DNA of 64,000 nucleotides from Micromonospora echinofusca (GTDB lineage: Bacteria > Actinomycetota > Actinomycetes > Mycobacteriales > Micromonosporaceae). The notes below the pieces were generated by a model that saw nothing but the letters and a program-made list of their open reading frames with translations, was not told the DNA's origin and did no database searches. Shown here one piece after another: positions 5,256-61,204 of this stretch. The position numbers were made by a program, and so were the translations under genes. The stretch lies in NCBI RefSeq assembly GCF_900091445.1, contig NZ_LT607733.1, positions 6,537,001 to 6,601,000 of the forward strand, read 5' to 3'. Every line of letters starts with the position of its first letter. Positions within the stretch are counted from its first letter, which is position 1.

Positions 5256-8200
5256 TCAGATCAGGCGGAGCTGGCGGTCGCGGGGGCGGCGGGGCTCGGC
5301 CTCGCCGAAGCGCTCGAACAGGCCCGGGTCGATGGCGCCGAGGAACGGCGACGGTACGCACTCGCGTTCCGTTCCGTGTCGGCTGCGACGGGCGGCGTGG
5401 GTGACGTACAGCCGGTCCTGGGCGCGGGTCAGCCCGACGAAGAAGAGCCGTCGCTCCTCGGCGATCGCGTCGTCGTCGGGCATGCTGCCGGGCCAGCGCA
5501 GCGGGAGCAGCCCGTCCTCGGCGCCGACCAGGAAGACCACCGGGAACTCCAGCCCCTTGGCGGCGTGCAGGGTGAGCAGCGTGACCGCCTCGGCGCGGGG
5601 GTCGAGCGCGTCCACCTCCGCGCCGGTGGCGAGCTGGGAGAGGAACAGCGGCAGGTCGTCGCCGCAGCGGCGGGCCAGCGGGGTGAGCAGGTCGACGGCC
5701 GAGCGGACGTCCTCCGGGCGTACCGCGCCGGAGCCGTCCAGCGTGGGCACCGCGAAGCGCTCCGCCAGCACCTGCCCGGCCAGCCGGACGCGGGCGGCCA
5801 GCGAACCGTCGAGCCCGTCGGCGTGGCGCAGCTCGCGGGCGATGGCGGACACCCCGGGCCGGTCCCGCAGCCGGTCGTGCGAGCGCTTCTGCACGGGGAT
5901 GTTCGCCCGCGCCAGCGCGTCCACGATCGGTGCGGCCTGGGCGTCGGTGCGGTAGAGCACCGCGATGTCGGAGAAGGAGAGCGAGGTGGACCGGCCGTCG
6001 ATGCGCCCCGAGTCCAGGGACCGGTGGGAGAGCCCGCCGACCAGCTCGTCGATGGTGCGTACGACGAAGTCGGCTTCGTCGGCGACGGACGCCGCCGGGT
6101 AGCGACCCACCAGCGGGGCCTCCGGGTCGAGCCGGGCCGGGTCGAGGCGGCGACCCCGGACCAGCGACGACGGCGCGATGGCCTGCACGGCGGCGGCCAG
6201 GATCGGGGCCGAGGAGCGGTAGTTGCGGTTCAGCCGGACCAGCCGGGCGTCGGTGAAGTCCTGTGAGAAGCGCAGGAAGTAGCCGACGTCGGCGCCCCGG
6301 AAGGAGTAGATCGCCTGGTCCGGGTCGCCGATCGCGCAGAGGTTGCCGTCGGCGGGGCTGAGTAGGCGCAGCAGCTCGTACTGCACCTCGTCGACGTCCT
6401 GGTACTCGTCGACGAAGATCCAGCGCCAGCGCTCCCGGTACCGCTGCACCAGCTTCTTGTCGGCCTTCAGCAGCGCGACCGGCAGGGTCAGCAGCTCGTC
6501 CAGGTCCACCAGGTCCTGCTTGCGTAGCAGTGCCGCGTAGGCGGTGTCGTCGTCGCCGGCCTCGGCGCGGGCCTCCGCCCGCTGGGCGTCGTCGGCGATC
6601 CGGAAGTCCGCCGGGAGGCCGACGGCGTCGGCGTTCTCCCGCAGGATCGTCAGCCCCAGCGAGTGGAAGGTGCCGACGGTGACGTCCTCGGCGACCGGGC
6701 CGAGCAGGCCGTCGAGGCGGTGCCGCAGTTCCTCGGCGGCCCGCCGGGTGAACGTGATCGCCAAGCACTGCTCGGGGAAGACGTTCAGCTCCGCGCAGAG
6801 GTAGGCGATCCGGTGGGTCAACGTCCGGGTCTTGCCGGTGCCCGGCCCGGCCACGATGAGCAGCGGACCGCCCGGCGCGGAGGCGGCCACGCGCTGCATG
6901 GCGTCCAGGCGGTCCAGCAGGCCGGTGCCGACCTCCTCCATCCCGGCGAGCATCGGCTCGAACGGCTCGTGCGGCGAGGGCGTCGGCGCGATCGGGGGCG
7001 GCGGCGCGGGCGGTGCGGCCTTGCGCTTGGGCTCGGCCCTGGCCGCCGTCGGGCGCTTGGCCCGGGGCTTCGGCGCCGGCTCCGCGGGGGTGCGCTGCGC
7101 CGGCACGGGTACGTCGAAGAGGGTCTCCTGCGCCGTACCGGCGTCGCCGCCCAGCTCGGCCGGGTCGAAGAGGGTGATGACGCCGTACTCGCCGTCGTAG
7201 CCGGGGACGCGGCGCACGTCGCCCCGGCGCAGCCGGCCGATGCCCTCGGCGAGCAGTTCCCCGCCGACCCGGCCGATCTCGTCGAGCGGCGTGGTGGTGA
7301 GGATCTCCAGCTCGGGGCCGAGCGCGGCGATCAGCTCGTGGAGTTTCCCCTCGACCCGCTTGGACCGGGCACCCACCTTGTTGAGTTCGCCGAGGATCTC
7401 GGCCAGCGGCACCAGGTGGGTGACGTCGCGGGCGTGCGCGGGGCGGTGCCCCGACGGGCGGTCGGCCAGCTCCTCGATCCGGCTGAGCACGCCGACGGTC
7501 AGCGGCTTGCCGCACTCGGGGCAGCGGCCACCGGCGGCCCGGGTCTGCTCGGGCGACCAGTTGACCCCGCAGAGCCGGTGCCCGTCCGCGTGGTACTTGC
7601 CCTCCTCGGGGAAGAACTCGATGGTCCCGGCGAGCCCGTCACCCGTACGCAGGGCGTCGCGGATGGCGAAGTAGTCGCGGGCGGTGGCGAAGACGGTGGC
7701 CTCCCGGGCCAGCGCCGGCGGCGAGTGCGCGTCCGAGTTGGACACCAGTTGGTAGCCGTCCAGGCTGCCGACGCGCCAGTTCATCCCGGGGTCGGAGGAG
7801 AGGCCGGTCTCCACCGCGAAGATGTGTTCGGCGAGGTCGGCGTAGCAGTCGGCGATCGCGTCGAAGCCCGACTTGGAGCCCAGCGCGGAGAACCACGGGG
7901 TCCAGATGTGCGCCGGCACCAGGTAGCCGTCCGCGCTGGCCTCCAGCGTGATCTCCAGCAGGTCCCGGGAGTCCAGGCCGAGGATCGGCCGGCCGTCCGA
8001 GCCGAGGTTGCCGATCCGCCCGAGCGCGGCGTTGAACCGGGCCACCGCGTCCAGGTCGGGCAGGTAGATCAGGTGGTGCACCTTGCGGGTGCGGTCGTCC
8101 CGCTTGTAGATCGTGGAGATCTCCACGCTGAGCATGAACCGGACCGGGTCCGCCTCCGCCTCGCTGGCCAGCCGGGGCGGCAGCCGGCGGGCGATGTCCC

Positions 8201-8465
8201 GCTCCGCCTCCGGGCTGAGTCGGTGCAGGCCGGGCTCGGCCGGGTGCAGCGTCTCGCGGAGGTGGTCGTACCAGGCGGGGTGGGTGAAGTCGCCGGTGCC
8301 GAGCACTCCGATGCCCTTGCGCCGTGCCCACCAGCCGAGGTTGGGCAGGGTCAGGTCGCGGCTGCACGCGCGCGAGTACTTCGAGTGGATGTGCAGATCC
8401 GCGACGAACGGCGAAGGGCCGCCGGGGGGTGCGGGACTGAACGGAGGCACGCCGCATCCTGTCAC
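5256..8465 (-). CDS. EndoQ-type PHP endonuclease fused to UvrD/PcrA helicase
   Basis: A 1069-residue two-enzyme fusion. Residues ~20-430 resemble endonuclease Q: PHP metal motifs ADLHIHSKYSRA (from 22), GTGDFTHP (~57), PAHIWTPWF (~184) and SNSDAHSP (~242), then TIEFFPEEGKYHADGHR, Cys299 and CPEC (315-318) of a zinc site, and GYDGEYG (~422). A Pro/Lys/Ala-rich linker (~450-510) leads to a full SF1A helicase: Walker A AGPGTGKT (~539), TFTRRAAEEL, Walker B FVDEYQD, GDPDQAIYSFRG, LNRNYRS and LTLHAAKGLEF. EndoQ cuts DNA 5' of deaminated or abasic bases; UvrD would unwind from the nick. GTG at 8465 is the likely start; a longer reading to 8531 lacks family similarity. Confidence 0.9.
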   Translation of the reverse strand: MTGCGVPPFSPAPPGGPSPFVADLHIHSKYSRACSRDLTLPNLGWWARRKGIGVLGTGDFTHPAWYDHLRETLHPAEPGLHRLSPEAERDIARRLPPRLASEAEADPVRFMLSVEISTIYKRDDRTRKVHHLIYLPDLDAVARFNAALGRIGNLGSDGRPILGLDSRDLLEITLEASADGYLVPAHIWTPWFSALGSKSGFDAIADCYADLAEHIFAVETGLSSDPGMNWRVGSLDGYQLVSNSDAHSPPALAREATVFATARDYFAIRDALRTGDGLAGTIEFFPEEGKYHADGHRLCGVNWSPEQTRAAGGRCPECGKPLTVGVLSRIEELADRPSGHRPAHARDVTHLVPLAEILGELNKVGARSKRVEGKLHELIAALGPELEILTTTPLDEIGRVGGELLAEGIGRLRRGDVRRVPGYDGEYGVITLFDPAELGGDAGTAQETLFDVPVPAQRTPAEPAPKPRAKRPTAARAEPKRKAAPPAPPPPIAPTPSPHEPFEPMLAGMEEVGTGLLDRLDAMQRVAASAPGGPLLIVAGPGTGKTRTLTHRIAYLCAELNVFPEQCLAITFTRRAAEELRHRLDGLLGPVAEDVTVGTFHSLGLTILRENADAVGLPADFRIADDAQRAEARAEAGDDDTAYAALLRKQDLVDLDELLTLPVALLKADKKLVQRYRERWRWIFVDEYQDVDEVQYELLRLLSPADGNLCAIGDPDQAIYSFRGADVGYFLRFSQDFTDARLVRLNRNYRSSAPILAAAVQAIAPSSLVRGRRLDPARLDPEAPLVGRYPAASVADEADFVVRTIDELVGGLSHRSLDSGRIDGRSTSLSFSDIAVLYRTDAQAAPIVDALARANIPVQKRSHDRLRDRPGVSAIARELRHADGLDGSLAARVRLAGQVLAERFAVPTLDGSGAVRPEDVRSAVDLLTPLARRCGDDLPLFLSQLATGAEVDALDPRAEAVTLLTLHAAKGLEFPVVFLVGAEDGLLPLRWPGSMPDDDAIAEERRLFFVGLTRAQDRLYVTHAARRSRHGTERECVPSPFLGAIDPGLFERFGEAEPRRPRDRQLRLI

Positions 8466-8550
8466 GACCGCGCCATAACCCACCCGTCGCCACGCACACC
8501 CGTGACCTGAGCATCCGGTGCTGGACAACACCGGCCGCCCGCGCTATGGG

Positions 8551-9822
8551 TCAGCGGGAGCGCAGCTCCACCAGGGTGATCTGGGGTTCGGCGCCGACGC
8601 GCACCGGCGGGCCCCAGAAGCCGGCGCCGTTGGTGACGTAGACCTTCGTGCCGTCGACCTCGCCCAGGCCGGAGACCACCGGCTGCTGGAGCTTCACCAG
8701 CAGGTTGAACGGGACCATCTGGCCGCCGTGGGTGTGCCCGGAGAGCTGGAGGTCGACGCCGAACTTCGCCGCCTCGACCGCCGCCACCGGCTGGTGGGCG
8801 AGCAGCACCACGGGGCGGTTCGGGTCGCGGTCGCCGAGCGCCGCCGCGTAGTCCGCCGGGGCGGCCAGGCCGGTGCCGGCGGCCGTGACGTCGTTCACCC
8901 CGGCCAGGTCGAGTACGCCGCCCCGGGCCTGGATCTCCGTCCGCTCGTTCTGCATGACCCGCAGGCCGAGGCGGTCCAACTCCTGGACCCACTCCTCGAC
9001 GCCCGAGTAGTACTCGTGGTTGCCGGTGACGAAGTAGCTGCCGTGCCGGGACCGCAGCCCGCGCAGCGGCTCGGCGGCCTCGCCCAGCTCCGCGACCGAG
9101 CCGTCGACCAGGTCGCCGACGACGGCGACGATGTCGGCGTCCAGGCGGTTGATCGCGGCGACGATCCGCTCGGTGTGCGCCCGGCCGCGCAGCGGGCCGA
9201 GGTGGATGTCGGAGACGGTGGCGATCCGCAGGCCGTCCATGCTGCGGGGGAGCTTGGCCAGCGGGATCTGCACCCGGTCGAGCTGCGGCGGGCCGAGGGC
9301 GGTGCGGATGCCGTACCCGGTGAGACCGGTCGCCGTGAGCCCGGCGAAGATCGCGGCCCCACGGGCGAGCAGCAACCGGCGGGCCGGGTCGTGGTCGGGC
9401 TGCCCGACGGCTCCGGCGGCCGGCGGGTCGGCCGGACCCGCCGCGCCCACCGCGGAGGGCTCGGGCGCGGCGGAGACCATGGCGGGCTCGGGTGCGGCGG
9501 CGGTGGGCTCCGCGGCGGCGACCTGGCGACGCAGCACGAGCTTCGTCACCGCCATCGGCACTTCCAGCGCCACGAGCAGGACGAGCAGGTAGAACATGAC
9601 GGCGAGCCAGAGGTAGCCCGGCCACGCGAGCCAGTAGAGGCCCGCCTGGGTGCCGACCATGGTCGCCGGTACGAGCAGCGCGAGCACCAGGGCGGTGATC
9701 CCGCCGATCCGCCGCCAGCGCCCCGGGGTGGTGGTGTCCCGCACCAGGCGCTTCCACAGGTAGAGGTGGATCAGGCCGGTGACCAGCCCTATGGTGGCGA
9801 CGAACGCCAGTGCCGCCAGCAT
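8551..9822 (-). CDS. Membrane-anchored metallophosphoesterase
   Basis: A 423-residue protein. The first ~100 residues hold four hydrophobic helices, followed by an Ala/Pro linker, a further hydrophobic stretch (~150-170) and a calcineurin-like phosphoesterase domain: VSDIHLGP with Asp205 and His207, GDLVDG, GNHEYY, LAHQP and SGHTHGGQ give the full two-metal site. The substrate is unknown; YkuE/YaeI-like relatives act on lipid or cell-envelope phosphates. ATG at 9822 is taken because the first helix MLAALAFVATIGLVTG begins there. It follows moaD by 13 bases on the same strand. Confidence 0.87.
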   Translation of the reverse strand: MLAALAFVATIGLVTGLIHLYLWKRLVRDTTTPGRWRRIGGITALVLALLVPATMVGTQAGLYWLAWPGYLWLAVMFYLLVLLVALEVPMAVTKLVLRRQVAAAEPTAAAPEPAMVSAAPEPSAVGAAGPADPPAAGAVGQPDHDPARRLLLARGAAIFAGLTATGLTGYGIRTALGPPQLDRVQIPLAKLPRSMDGLRIATVSDIHLGPLRGRAHTERIVAAINRLDADIVAVVGDLVDGSVAELGEAAEPLRGLRSRHGSYFVTGNHEYYSGVEEWVQELDRLGLRVMQNERTEIQARGGVLDLAGVNDVTAAGTGLAAPADYAAALGDRDPNRPVVLLAHQPVAAVEAAKFGVDLQLSGHTHGGQMVPFNLLVKLQQPVVSGLGEVDGTKVYVTNGAGFWGPPVRVGAEPQITLVELRSR

Positions 9823-9835
9823 GTGTGCGCCTCCC

Positions 9836-10195
9836 TCAGCCGCCCGCGAAGGGCGGCAGGACGTCGATCGTGGCCCCGGCCGGAAGCGGTGCCCGCCGAT
9901 CATGACAGGTCACGCCGTCGACGAGGAAACTCGCCACCTTCAGCACGGCGGCGAGCCGTTCGCCGTGCCGTTCGGTCAACTCGACGAGGAGTTCGTCCAG
10001 GGACCGGCCGCCGGATGCGGTCTCCTCGGACCGGCCGGCGGCGGCCCGCGCCCCGGCGAAGTAGCGGACGGTCAGCGGCGCCCCGGCGCCGGCAGCCGGT
10101 TCGGCCGGGGTCGGTTCGGGCTCGGCCGGGCCTGTGTGCGCCGGTGGGGCCGGGGCCGCTGCCCAGGTACGGCCCGCGTGCGTCGGTGCCGCCAC
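9836..10195 (-). CDS. moaD: MoaD/ThiS-family sulfur carrier
   Basis: A 119-residue protein: about 38 residues of low-complexity Ala/Pro-rich extension, then a beta-grasp domain starting LTVRYFAGARAAAG and ending LPPFAGG. The terminal Gly-Gly is the site adenylated and thiocarboxylated for sulfur transfer by molybdopterin synthase in molybdenum cofactor synthesis. GTG at 10195 lies 2 bases after the moaA stop, so translation is coupled to moaA. No moaE is seen in the window. ThiS is less likely given moaA next door. Confidence 0.87.
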   Translation of the reverse strand: MAAPTHAGRTWAAAPAPPAHTGPAEPEPTPAEPAAGAGAPLTVRYFAGARAAAGRSEETASGGRSLDELLVELTERHGERLAAVLKVASFLVDGVTCHDRRAPLPAGATIDVLPPFAGG

Positions 10196-60343: not shown

Positions 60344-61204
60344 TCACCGTACAAGTCGAGAGAGCCGACGGTCAGCGAGCGGCTTCCCGCCGGTCTGGCA
60401 GGTCGCGCAGTACTGGAGGCTGGAATCGGCGAACGAGACCTCGCGGACGGTGTCCCCGCAGACCGGGCAGGGCTGCCCCGTGCGGGCGTGCACCTTCAGC
60501 CCCGAGCGCTTCTCGCCCTTCAGCTCGGCCGCCTTCTGCCCGACCGACCGGCGCACCGCGTCGCCGAGCACCTCCCGCGTCGCCGCGTGCAGGGTCGCCA
60601 GCTGGTCGTCGGTCAGCCGATTGGTCAGCGCGAACGGCGACAGCTTCGCCGCGTGCAGGATCTCGTCGGAGTACGCGTTGCCGACCCCGGCCAGCACCGT
60701 CTGGTCGGTGAGCACGCCCTTGACCTGGCCCTTGCGGCTGCGCATCCGCTCGGCGAAGGTGGCCGCGTCGGCGGCGAGGGCGTCGGGGCCGAGCCGGGCC
60801 ACCCCGGGCACCGCCGCCGGGTCCGTGACCAGGTAGACGGCGAGGCTCTTCTGGGTGCCGGCCTCGGTCAGGTCGAAGCCCGAGCCGTCGTCGAGGCGTA
60901 CCCGCAGCGCGATCGGTCCCTTCCCGGGGCGCAGCGGGGCTGCGGACGGAAACGCCTCCCGGTAGTGCAGCCAGCCCGCCCGGGCCAGGTGAACCACCAG
61001 GTGCAGCTCGCCGTCGAGCACCACGTCGAGGAACTTGCCATGCCGGCGGGCGTCCGTCACGGTCCGCCCGGCGGCGGCGGTCGGCGCCGGGTCGTACGTC
61101 TTCAGGGCGCTGATCGCGGCGACCTCCAACCGGTCGACGCGCCGCCCCACCGCGCGCTCACGCAGGTAGTCCGTGAGCGCCTCGACCTCCGGTAGTTCGG
61201 GCAC
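60344..61204 (-). CDS. Fpg/Nei-family DNA glycosylase
   Basis: A 286-residue base-excision glycosylase/lyase. It begins with Pro2-Glu3 (VPELPEVEAL), the catalytic N-terminal proline once Met is removed; GVGNAYSDEIL is the helix-two-turn-helix, and a zinc finger is formed by Cys246, Cys249, Cys266 and Cys269. Lys in AGTQKSLAVYL resembles the Nei1/Fpg2 branch of actinobacteria, so the preferred lesion is uncertain. GTG at 61204 lies 6 bases behind TACCGT, sharing the promoter region with the GT4 gene. Confidence 0.9.
   Translation of the reverse strand: MPELPEVEALTDYLRERAVGRRVDRLEVAAISALKTYDPAPTAAAGRTVTDARRHGKFLDVVLDGELHLVVHLARAGWLHYREAFPSAAPLRPGKGPIALRVRLDDGSGFDLTEAGTQKSLAVYLVTDPAAVPGVARLGPDALAADAATFAERMRSRKGQVKGVLTDQTVLAGVGNAYSDEILHAAKLSPFALTNRLTDDQLATLHAATREVLGDAVRRSVGQKAAELKGEKRSGLKVHARTGQPCPVCGDTVREVSFADSSLQYCATCQTGGKPLADRRLSRLVR

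What the first reader, a model, noticed from the sequence alone, without database searches (positions are those of the whole stretch)
5256..8465. EndoQ-type PHP nuclease fused to a UvrD helicase
Residues ~20-430 carry the whole set of EndoQ-like motifs (DLHIHS, GTGDFTHP, SNSDAHSP, FFPEEGKYHADGHR, CPEC zinc site, GYDGEYG), a repair nuclease best known from archaea that nicks 5' of uracil, hypoxanthine or abasic sites. The same protein then has a complete SF1A helicase with intact Walker motifs. A lesion nickase joined to a helicase suggests a one-protein pathway: nick, unwind, resynthesise. An Fpg/Nei glycosylase is also in the window, though not linked. I have no knowledge of a biochemical study of this fusion.
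Basis: partly seen in the sequence, partly recalled or inferred. Interest (0 to 1): 0.75.

Follow-up and report, generated by a model that had tools for sequence, protein, structure and literature searches.

The report
EndoQ–UvrD fusion with clamp-like tail
A soil bacterium (Micromonospora) makes one long protein that joins a DNA nickase built like those that cut beside decayed bases to a DNA-unwinding motor, and ends in a short tag like those that hook repair enzymes onto the replication clamp; the same joined protein occurs in many distantly related bacteria but appears not to have been studied.

The parts
5256..8450 (-). endoQ-uvrD fusion gene, 1064 codons, GTG start at 8450, stop 5256-5258
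   Evidence: identical database copy P0002 starts at the same codon
7143..8414 (-). EndoQ module (PHP catalytic domain, zinc-binding domain and C-terminal domain)
8382..8399 (-). PHP motif I, DLHIHS
   Evidence: D18 and H22 in 53 of 53, H20 in 52 of 53 aligned fusions
8100..8123 (-). EISTIYKR, E110 = PfuEndoQ Glu76 (metal ligand)
   Evidence: role from PMC8307549 passages
8070..8084 (-). KVHHL, H125 = PfuEndoQ His84 (metal ligand)
7893..7916 (-). PAHIWTPW, H181 = PfuEndoQ His139 (metal ligand and base gate)
7797..7811 (-). ETGLS, G216 and S218 = PfuEndoQ Gly169 and Ser171 (base pocket)
7719..7742 (-). SNSDAHSP, PHP motif (D240, H242)
   Evidence: D240 and H242 in 53 of 53, N238 in 46 of 53
7512..7580 (-). 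zinc site H-x2-C-x15-C-x2-C (first Cys of PfuEndoQ replaced by His)
   Evidence: His in 52 of 53, Cys in 1; the three Cys in 53 of 53
6927..7142 (-). Pro/Ala-rich linker, pLDDT below 50 over residues 436-508
   Evidence: sequence
7116..7130 (-). QETLF directly after the EndoQ module: clamp-motif-like sequence resembling the QxTLF C-terminus of many stand-alone bacterial EndoQ proteins
   Evidence: suggestive only
5298..6926 (-). SF1A UvrD/PcrA-type helicase with short 1B and 2B subdomains
6828..6848 (-). Walker A GPGTGKT
   Evidence: K540 and T541 in 53 of 53
6396..6410 (-). Walker B / motif II DEYQD
   Evidence: D681, E682 and D685 in 53 of 53
5418..5435 (-). motif VI GLTRAQ
   Evidence: R1009 in 53 of 53
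5259..5273 (-). C-terminal QLRLI, putative β-sliding-clamp-binding motif
   Evidence: consensus from PMC11139829 passages

Best explanation
It is an EndoQ-family lesion nickase fused to a compact UvrD-type 3'-5' helicase and tethered by its C-terminus to the β sliding clamp. Proposed working order: the C-terminal QLRLI (and perhaps QETLF in the linker) holds the protein on the clamp; the EndoQ module flips uracil, hypoxanthine or an abasic site out of DNA and nicks the strand 5' of it, leaving 3'-OH and 5'-phosphate; the helicase, on a flexible linker, loads on the intact strand at the nick, moves 3'-5' along it and peels the lesion-bearing strand off from its 5' end; a polymerase starts from the 3'-OH, a 5' nuclease removes the flap and ligase seals. 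Shown here: domain make-up, folds (predicted), conserved catalytic and pocket residues, conserved tail motif, distribution. Inferred: substrates, polarity and loading strand, clamp binding, order of steps, partners.
For: Fold and residues; residue roles from PMC8307549 passages. Characterised EndoQs, including one from Bacillus pumilus, nick 5' of uracil and at hypoxanthine, xanthine and AP sites (PMC6202378 passages). The 13 motor residues tabulated are invariant in 53 fusions. Tail motif in 62 of 67 fused frames with a stop (shuffle rate 0.8%), in 120 of the 120 best-matching proteins listed (of 7,997 matches), and not at the ends of the genome's own PcrA-like and UvrD2-like (label recalled) helicases. 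Of 120 listed stand-alone EndoQ proteins, 118 have the looser Q-x-x-[LIM]-[FLIWY] in the last 12 residues (shuffles 1.7%). Archaeal EndoQ binds and is stimulated by PCNA through a C-terminal PIP box, and that paper notes β-clamp motifs in the C-terminal region of bacterial EndoQ homologues (PMC4858679 passages). Gene in 36 of 37 genomes of the genus, window genome included; the neighbouring metallophosphoesterase frame recurs in 26 loci, the number of Micromonosporaceae loci among the 80. No wide partner gene in distant loci. No match of the EndoQ half in the phage or plasmid collections.
Against: No biochemical or genetic datum for any fusion. The same genome encodes four UDG-superfamily matches, one EndoV and NucS, so the enzyme would be redundant for uracil and hypoxanthine. 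The residue aligned to Pfu Asn191 is not invariant (46 of 53). The Actinomycetota tail QLRLI/L departs from the QL(S/D)LF consensus at positions 3 and 5. By the strict pattern used for the fusions only 12 of the 120 stand-alone proteins score, and seven other stand-alone frames (L089, L109, L115, L116, L118, L132, L140) show no such tail, so the ancestral link of the motif to EndoQ is unsure. No SOS-like or PafBC-like site (patterns recalled) lies in the 8450-8600 region. The NCBIfam TIGR00375 score (150.9) is below its cut-off (326.6). Short 1B/2B could mean a translocase rather than a helicase. Five family members without the helicase lie nested among the fusions.
Confidence: 0.6

Rival explanations
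1. Motor-first scanning nickase: the helicase/translocase runs along single-stranded DNA near forks or R-loops and drives the EndoQ module along it, which cuts when it meets a deaminated base; unwinding after the nick is not its main job.
For: PfuEndoQ cuts uracil and hypoxanthine in single-stranded DNA as well as duplex (PMC11354406 passages). The 2B subdomain is short in all 53 fusions and 1B in most. Clamp-like tail.
Against: Cutting a single-stranded template at a fork would make a broken end, which is risky (inference). UvrD-type motor motifs of true helicases are intact.
Confidence: 0.2
2. Anti-phage defence: a nickase-plus-UvrD machine that attacks phages with uracil or other unusual bases, by analogy with Gabija (nuclease GajA plus helicase GajB).
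For: Of 51 PADLOC families matched by the whole protein, 24 of the 25 shown are GajB models and one is a DRT helicase model, which I read as general UvrD kinship. PMC8307549 mentions a possible antiviral role of bacterial EndoQ (passages). Patchy distribution across phyla.
Against: 36 of 37 genomes of the genus have it, with neighbours kept across Micromonosporaceae, as for a housekeeping gene. The EndoQ half has no PADLOC match. No match in the phage or plasmid collections. The clamp-like tail fits repair better.
Confidence: 0.1
3. The EndoQ module keeps the fold but has a different substrate (another base lesion, a mismatch or a structure), so the protein is a structure- or lesion-specific nickase-helicase outside deamination repair.
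For: About 30% identity to PfuEndoQ; the Asn191 position varies; one zinc ligand differs; redundancy with UDG, EndoV and NucS.
Against: The Glu76, His84, His139, Gly169 and Ser171 equivalents are all invariant.
Confidence: 0.1

Closest known systems
Endonuclease Q (PfuEndoQ, TkoEndoQ, MacEndoQ, B. pumilus EndoQ)
   Same: Whole EndoQ fold (predicted), metal-site and base-pocket residues, zinc-binding domain, clamp-type motif at a C-terminus
   Different: Fused to a helicase; first zinc Cys is His; the clamp-like motif stands at the end of the helicase, with a QETLF-like sequence after EndoQ
UvrD/PcrA/Rep SF1A helicases
   Different: N-terminal EndoQ; 1B and 2B short; ends about 13 residues after the UvrD-like fold with a clamp-like motif, leaving no room for a Tudor-type tail; far below the PcrA, UvrD and Rep equivalog cut-offs
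Stand-alone bacterial EndoQ (P0122-P0241, where named mostly Patescibacteria-type groups)
   Same: L037, the query of that search, is 45-48% identical to the EndoQ module and has the same H-x2-C zinc variant; clamp-like C-terminus in 118 of 120 by the looser pattern
   Different: No helicase; several carry the database name 'DNA helicase UvrD', apparently carried over from the fused form
Gabija (GajA-GajB), AddAB/RecBCD and AdnAB helicase-nucleases
   Same: Nuclease working with a UvrD-superfamily motor
   Different: Unrelated nuclease domains; the first is a defence system, the others process DNA ends (recalled)

Membership tests
Endonuclease Q family | PHP metal-site residues (Pfu Glu76, His84, His139; PHP motifs HxH, SDAH) | tested here: met
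   Aligned positions 53 of 53, except H20 at 52 of 53 (roles)
Endonuclease Q family | Base-pocket residues Gly169 and Ser171 beside His139 | tested here: met
   53 of 53 each
Endonuclease Q family | Zinc site of four Cys in the C-terminal half | tested here: inconclusive
   Three Cys in 53 of 53; the first Cys is His in 52 of 53, a plausible zinc ligand
Endonuclease Q family | EndoQ fold over its whole length | tested here: met
Endonuclease Q family | NCBIfam TIGR00375 cut-off (a model threshold, not a biochemical definition) | tested here: not met
   150.9 bits against 326.6; none of the 396 genomes of the phylum reached the cut-off, 2 of 14 controls did
Endonuclease Q family | Nicks 5' of uracil, hypoxanthine and AP sites | not testable with these tools
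   needs purified protein
SF1A UvrD/PcrA helicases | Motor motifs Q, I, II, III, IV, V, VI | tested here: met
   13 tabulated residues in 53 of 53
SF1A UvrD/PcrA helicases | Full-size 1B and 2B subdomains | tested here: not met
   Against the PcrA gaps: 2B stretch 31-58 residues in all 53 (PcrA 125); 1B stretch 16 here, 1-62 across the 53 with 6 of 53 at 50 or more (PcrA 61)
PcrA/UvrD/Rep equivalogs | NCBIfam cut-offs | tested here: not met
   384.6 of 911.2, 305.2 of 1144.45, 294.7 of 951.45 bits
β-clamp-binding proteins | QL(S/D)LF-type short motif in a flexible segment | tested here: met
   62 of 67 by pattern; residues 1050-1064 of the model have pLDDT under 50
β-clamp-binding proteins | Physical binding to the clamp | not testable with these tools
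   needs purified proteins
Gabija | GajA nuclease partner | tested here: not met
   The EndoQ half has no PADLOC family; the whole protein matches GajB-type helicase models

The most novel reading that the evidence does not exclude
Bacteria in about nine phyla own a glycosylase-independent excision-repair route carried by one clamp-riding protein. It holds the β clamp, possibly at two points (after the nuclease and after the motor), nicks beside deaminated or lost bases, then uses its own stripped-down UvrD motor to expose the damaged strand for resynthesis. It would be the bacterial counterpart of the archaeal EndoQ-PCNA pathway with the missing strand-displacement motor built in.
Probability: 0.35. 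Interest if true: 0.8.

Novelty: new variant of a known kind. Interest (0 to 1): 0.62.

Why it matters
How the nicks made by archaeal EndoQ are repaired is called elusive in a review (PMC8438529 passages). A natural fusion of EndoQ to a helicase with a clamp-binding-like tail points at the next step (clamp-held strand displacement) and makes it testable in one protein. The papers seen here describe bacterial EndoQ as limited to a few groups such as Bacillus and Desulfovibrio (passages); the survey here finds the fused form in loci named to about nine phyla. The family also shows a UvrD-type motor with a short 2B subdomain, and some stand-alone EndoQs are named 'DNA helicase UvrD' in databases.

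Tried and rejected
Operon or system reading: among loci outside Micromonosporaceae, of the 15 largest neighbour clusters printed the largest spans 8 loci and looks like an ABC-transporter ATPase (my reading of the sequence), and the rest span 3 or 4; so I treat it as a gene without a fixed partner. SOS or PafBC control: consensus scans gave matches window-wide and none in 8450-8600; the 48 SOS-like matches exceed the shuffles (mean 21.6, largest 31) for reasons not followed up. A separate two-gene arrangement as ancestor: the only case among the 80 loci, L102, is two frames that meet beside a run of A, so it may be a sequencing error, decay or slippage and is not used as evidence. Broken copies set aside as possible draft-assembly artefacts, unproven: G016 (no helicase half in its contig), G057 (helicase split between two frames), L050. 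The QETLF linker motif as a second clamp site is only suggestive: the strict pattern is in 6 of 53 fusions (shuffles 0.2%), a looser xLF form in 37 of 53 (shuffles 2.4%), and a QxTLF-like form in 100 of 120 listed close relatives. I first wrote that 1B is short family-wide; one search shows 6 of 53 with near-normal length, so I limit that claim to this protein and most others. The PfuEndoQ structure papers could not be read (not held), so residue roles come from a review's passages. A phage search with the whole protein matched 136 records; the 15 shown match the helicase half only.
Full report
What is there. The plus strand of 5256-8465 is broken by stops in the frame translated; the minus strand is open. 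The gene most likely starts at the GTG at 8450: the identical database copy P0002 is 1064 aa and begins there. The organism is a Micromonospora by its closest named protein records (M. echinofusca, 99% identity); the window lies in a 7.0-Mb single-contig genome. The protein has three parts: EndoQ module (residues 13-436), linker (437-508) and helicase (509-1051), followed by a short tail. Residue numbers below are in the 1064-aa protein.

The tail. A2 was built from the window plus 52 of the 66 complete fused loci listed; 14 were left out (13 Micromonospora or Salinispora relatives and L080). Its invariant columns include Q1060, five residues from the end, although the residues before it vary. 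Of 67 fused frames with a stop, 62 match Q[LMI]x[LMIF][LMIFVW] in the last 25 residues, 58 of them exactly at the end; shuffling the last 45 residues gives 0.8%. Of the five misses, L050 is a broken frame, and L067, L070, L101 and L103 end QQRLF, QPRLL, QMSFDF and QFSLF. Of the 24 frames from outside Actinomycetota (two of unnamed phylum), 20 carry QLSLF, QLDLF, QLELF or QLKLF. QL(S/D)LF is the β-clamp-binding consensus; position 4 is Leu or Met and the last Phe, Leu or Ile, and position 3 is free (PMC11139829 passages). All 120 proteins listed (best of 7,997; Micromonospora where named) end QLRLI, QLRLL or QLRLM. The genome's own PcrA-like and UvrD2-like helicases end without it, whereas its NucS ends ELTLF. 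Of 120 stand-alone EndoQ proteins listed, 118 have the looser Q-x-x-[LIM]-[FLIWY] in the last 12 residues (shuffles 1.7%), 111 end exactly QxxLF, and 36 end QKTLF; by the strict pattern only 12 of 120 score. Against this, seven other stand-alone frames (L089, L109, L115, L116, L118, L132, L140) show no such tail. In the fusion the place just after the EndoQ module reads QETLF. The archaeal enzyme binds PCNA by a C-terminal PIP box, and the same paper notes β-clamp motifs in the C-terminal region of bacterial EndoQ homologues (PMC4858679 passages). So a clamp motif on bacterial EndoQ is not new; its place at the end of an attached helicase is what I add.

Distribution. With the first 430 residues as query, 36 of 37 genomes of the genus (window genome included) and 3 of 24 other genomes of the order match. 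Two of these copies are broken in their drafts: G016 and, in the order, G057. In the phylum, 7 of 396 genomes match A1 (TIGR00375 gives 9, two of them weak): five have frames over 1000 aa, G088 is cut at a contig end, and G332 is stand-alone. The fused loci carry names from Actinomycetota, Chloroflexota, Myxococcota, Verrucomicrobiota, Planctomycetota, Pseudomonadota, Binatota, Elusimicrobiota and Melainabacteria; those outside Actinomycetota are metagenome-derived by their titles, so single assignments may be wrong. In the phylum of L108, 6 of 301 genomes match: 2 with frames over 1000 aa and 4 short. In the phylum of L087, 33 of 294 match: 10 near-full-length matches lie in frames over 1000 aa, two partial matches lie in long frames, and 21 are in shorter frames, some perhaps cut by contig ends. 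In some searches only the best 4-6 first-look candidates per genome were scored. Of the ten long frames, nine gave loci (L129-L131, L133-L138) and all nine show a Walker A after EndoQ.

Context. The gene stands about 100 bp after a metallophosphoesterase gene on the same strand, with a MoaA-like gene further upstream. The metallophosphoesterase frame recurs in 26 loci, the number of Micromonosporaceae loci among the 80. Outside that family no wide partner appears within the roughly 6 kb of flank: the largest cluster spans 8 loci and looks like an ABC-transporter ATPase, the others printed 3 or 4 (15 clusters shown). The EndoQ half has no match at E 1e-5 in 50,697 phage or 72,556 plasmid records. 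The genome also has four UDG-superfamily matches, one EndoV, NucS, five Fpg/Nei-type matches and other UvrD-type helicases.

How it would work. EndoQ leaves 3'-OH and 5'-phosphate after cutting on the 5' side of the lesion (PMC4357722 passages); SF1A helicases move 3'-5' (recalled). Inference: to remove the lesion strand the motor must load on the intact strand opposite the nick; moving 3'-5' there peels the damaged strand from its 5' end, making a flap for a 5' nuclease while a polymerase extends the 3'-OH. Loading on the nicked strand would instead unwind away from the lesion. The clamp would mark the place and bring the polymerase. PfuEndoQ also cuts uracil and hypoxanthine in single-stranded DNA (PMC11354406 passages), so a motor-first scanning role stays open.

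Literature. Searches of the open-access library listed no paper whose title, abstract start or (where I opened it) passages describe an EndoQ-UvrD fusion. The lists were capped (30 of 94, 25 of 87, 15 of 223), papers were seen as listings or passages plus one section, and subscription papers are not covered. Databases do hold the proteins, as 'UvrD-helicase domain-containing protein' or 'TIGR00375 family protein'. The precomputed Pfam label PF27218 is shared by fused and stand-alone proteins and seems to be the EndoQ family; no call gave its name.

Verdict. Observation confirmed; interpretation partly supported; a new variant of a known family, with a testable mechanism.

Noticed in passing
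window 8551-9903 (-): Metallophosphoesterase gene (Pfam Metallophos, 450 aa) ends about 100 bp upstream of the fusion on the same strand; its frame recurs in 26 loci, the number of Micromonosporaceae loci among the 80.
   Followed up: partly
window 60884-61201 (-): Fpg/Nei-type glycosylase match, one of five in the genome.
   Followed up: no
L102 about 7229-7254: EndoQ and helicase halves lie in two frames that meet beside a run of ten A in a Gastranaerophilales bin; sequencing error, decay or slippage not distinguished. The second frame still ends QLTLF.
   Followed up: partly
P0124, P0134, P0217, P0235: About 415-aa stand-alone EndoQ proteins are named 'DNA helicase UvrD' in NCBI although the listed Pfam label shows no helicase domain.
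   Followed up: no
window, many sites: SOS-box-like pattern TCGAAC-N4-GTTCGA (3 mismatches allowed) occurs 48 times against 21.6 in shuffles; perhaps a codon or palindrome bias.
   Followed up: no
L074 and L076: EndoQ modules of Kibdelosporangium and Rhodococcus rhodnii fusions sit close together on a long shared branch across families, which suggests recent transfer or a mislabelled assembly.
   Followed up: no
L141: NucS of this genome ends in ELTLF, itself a clamp-motif-like C-terminus.
   Followed up: no
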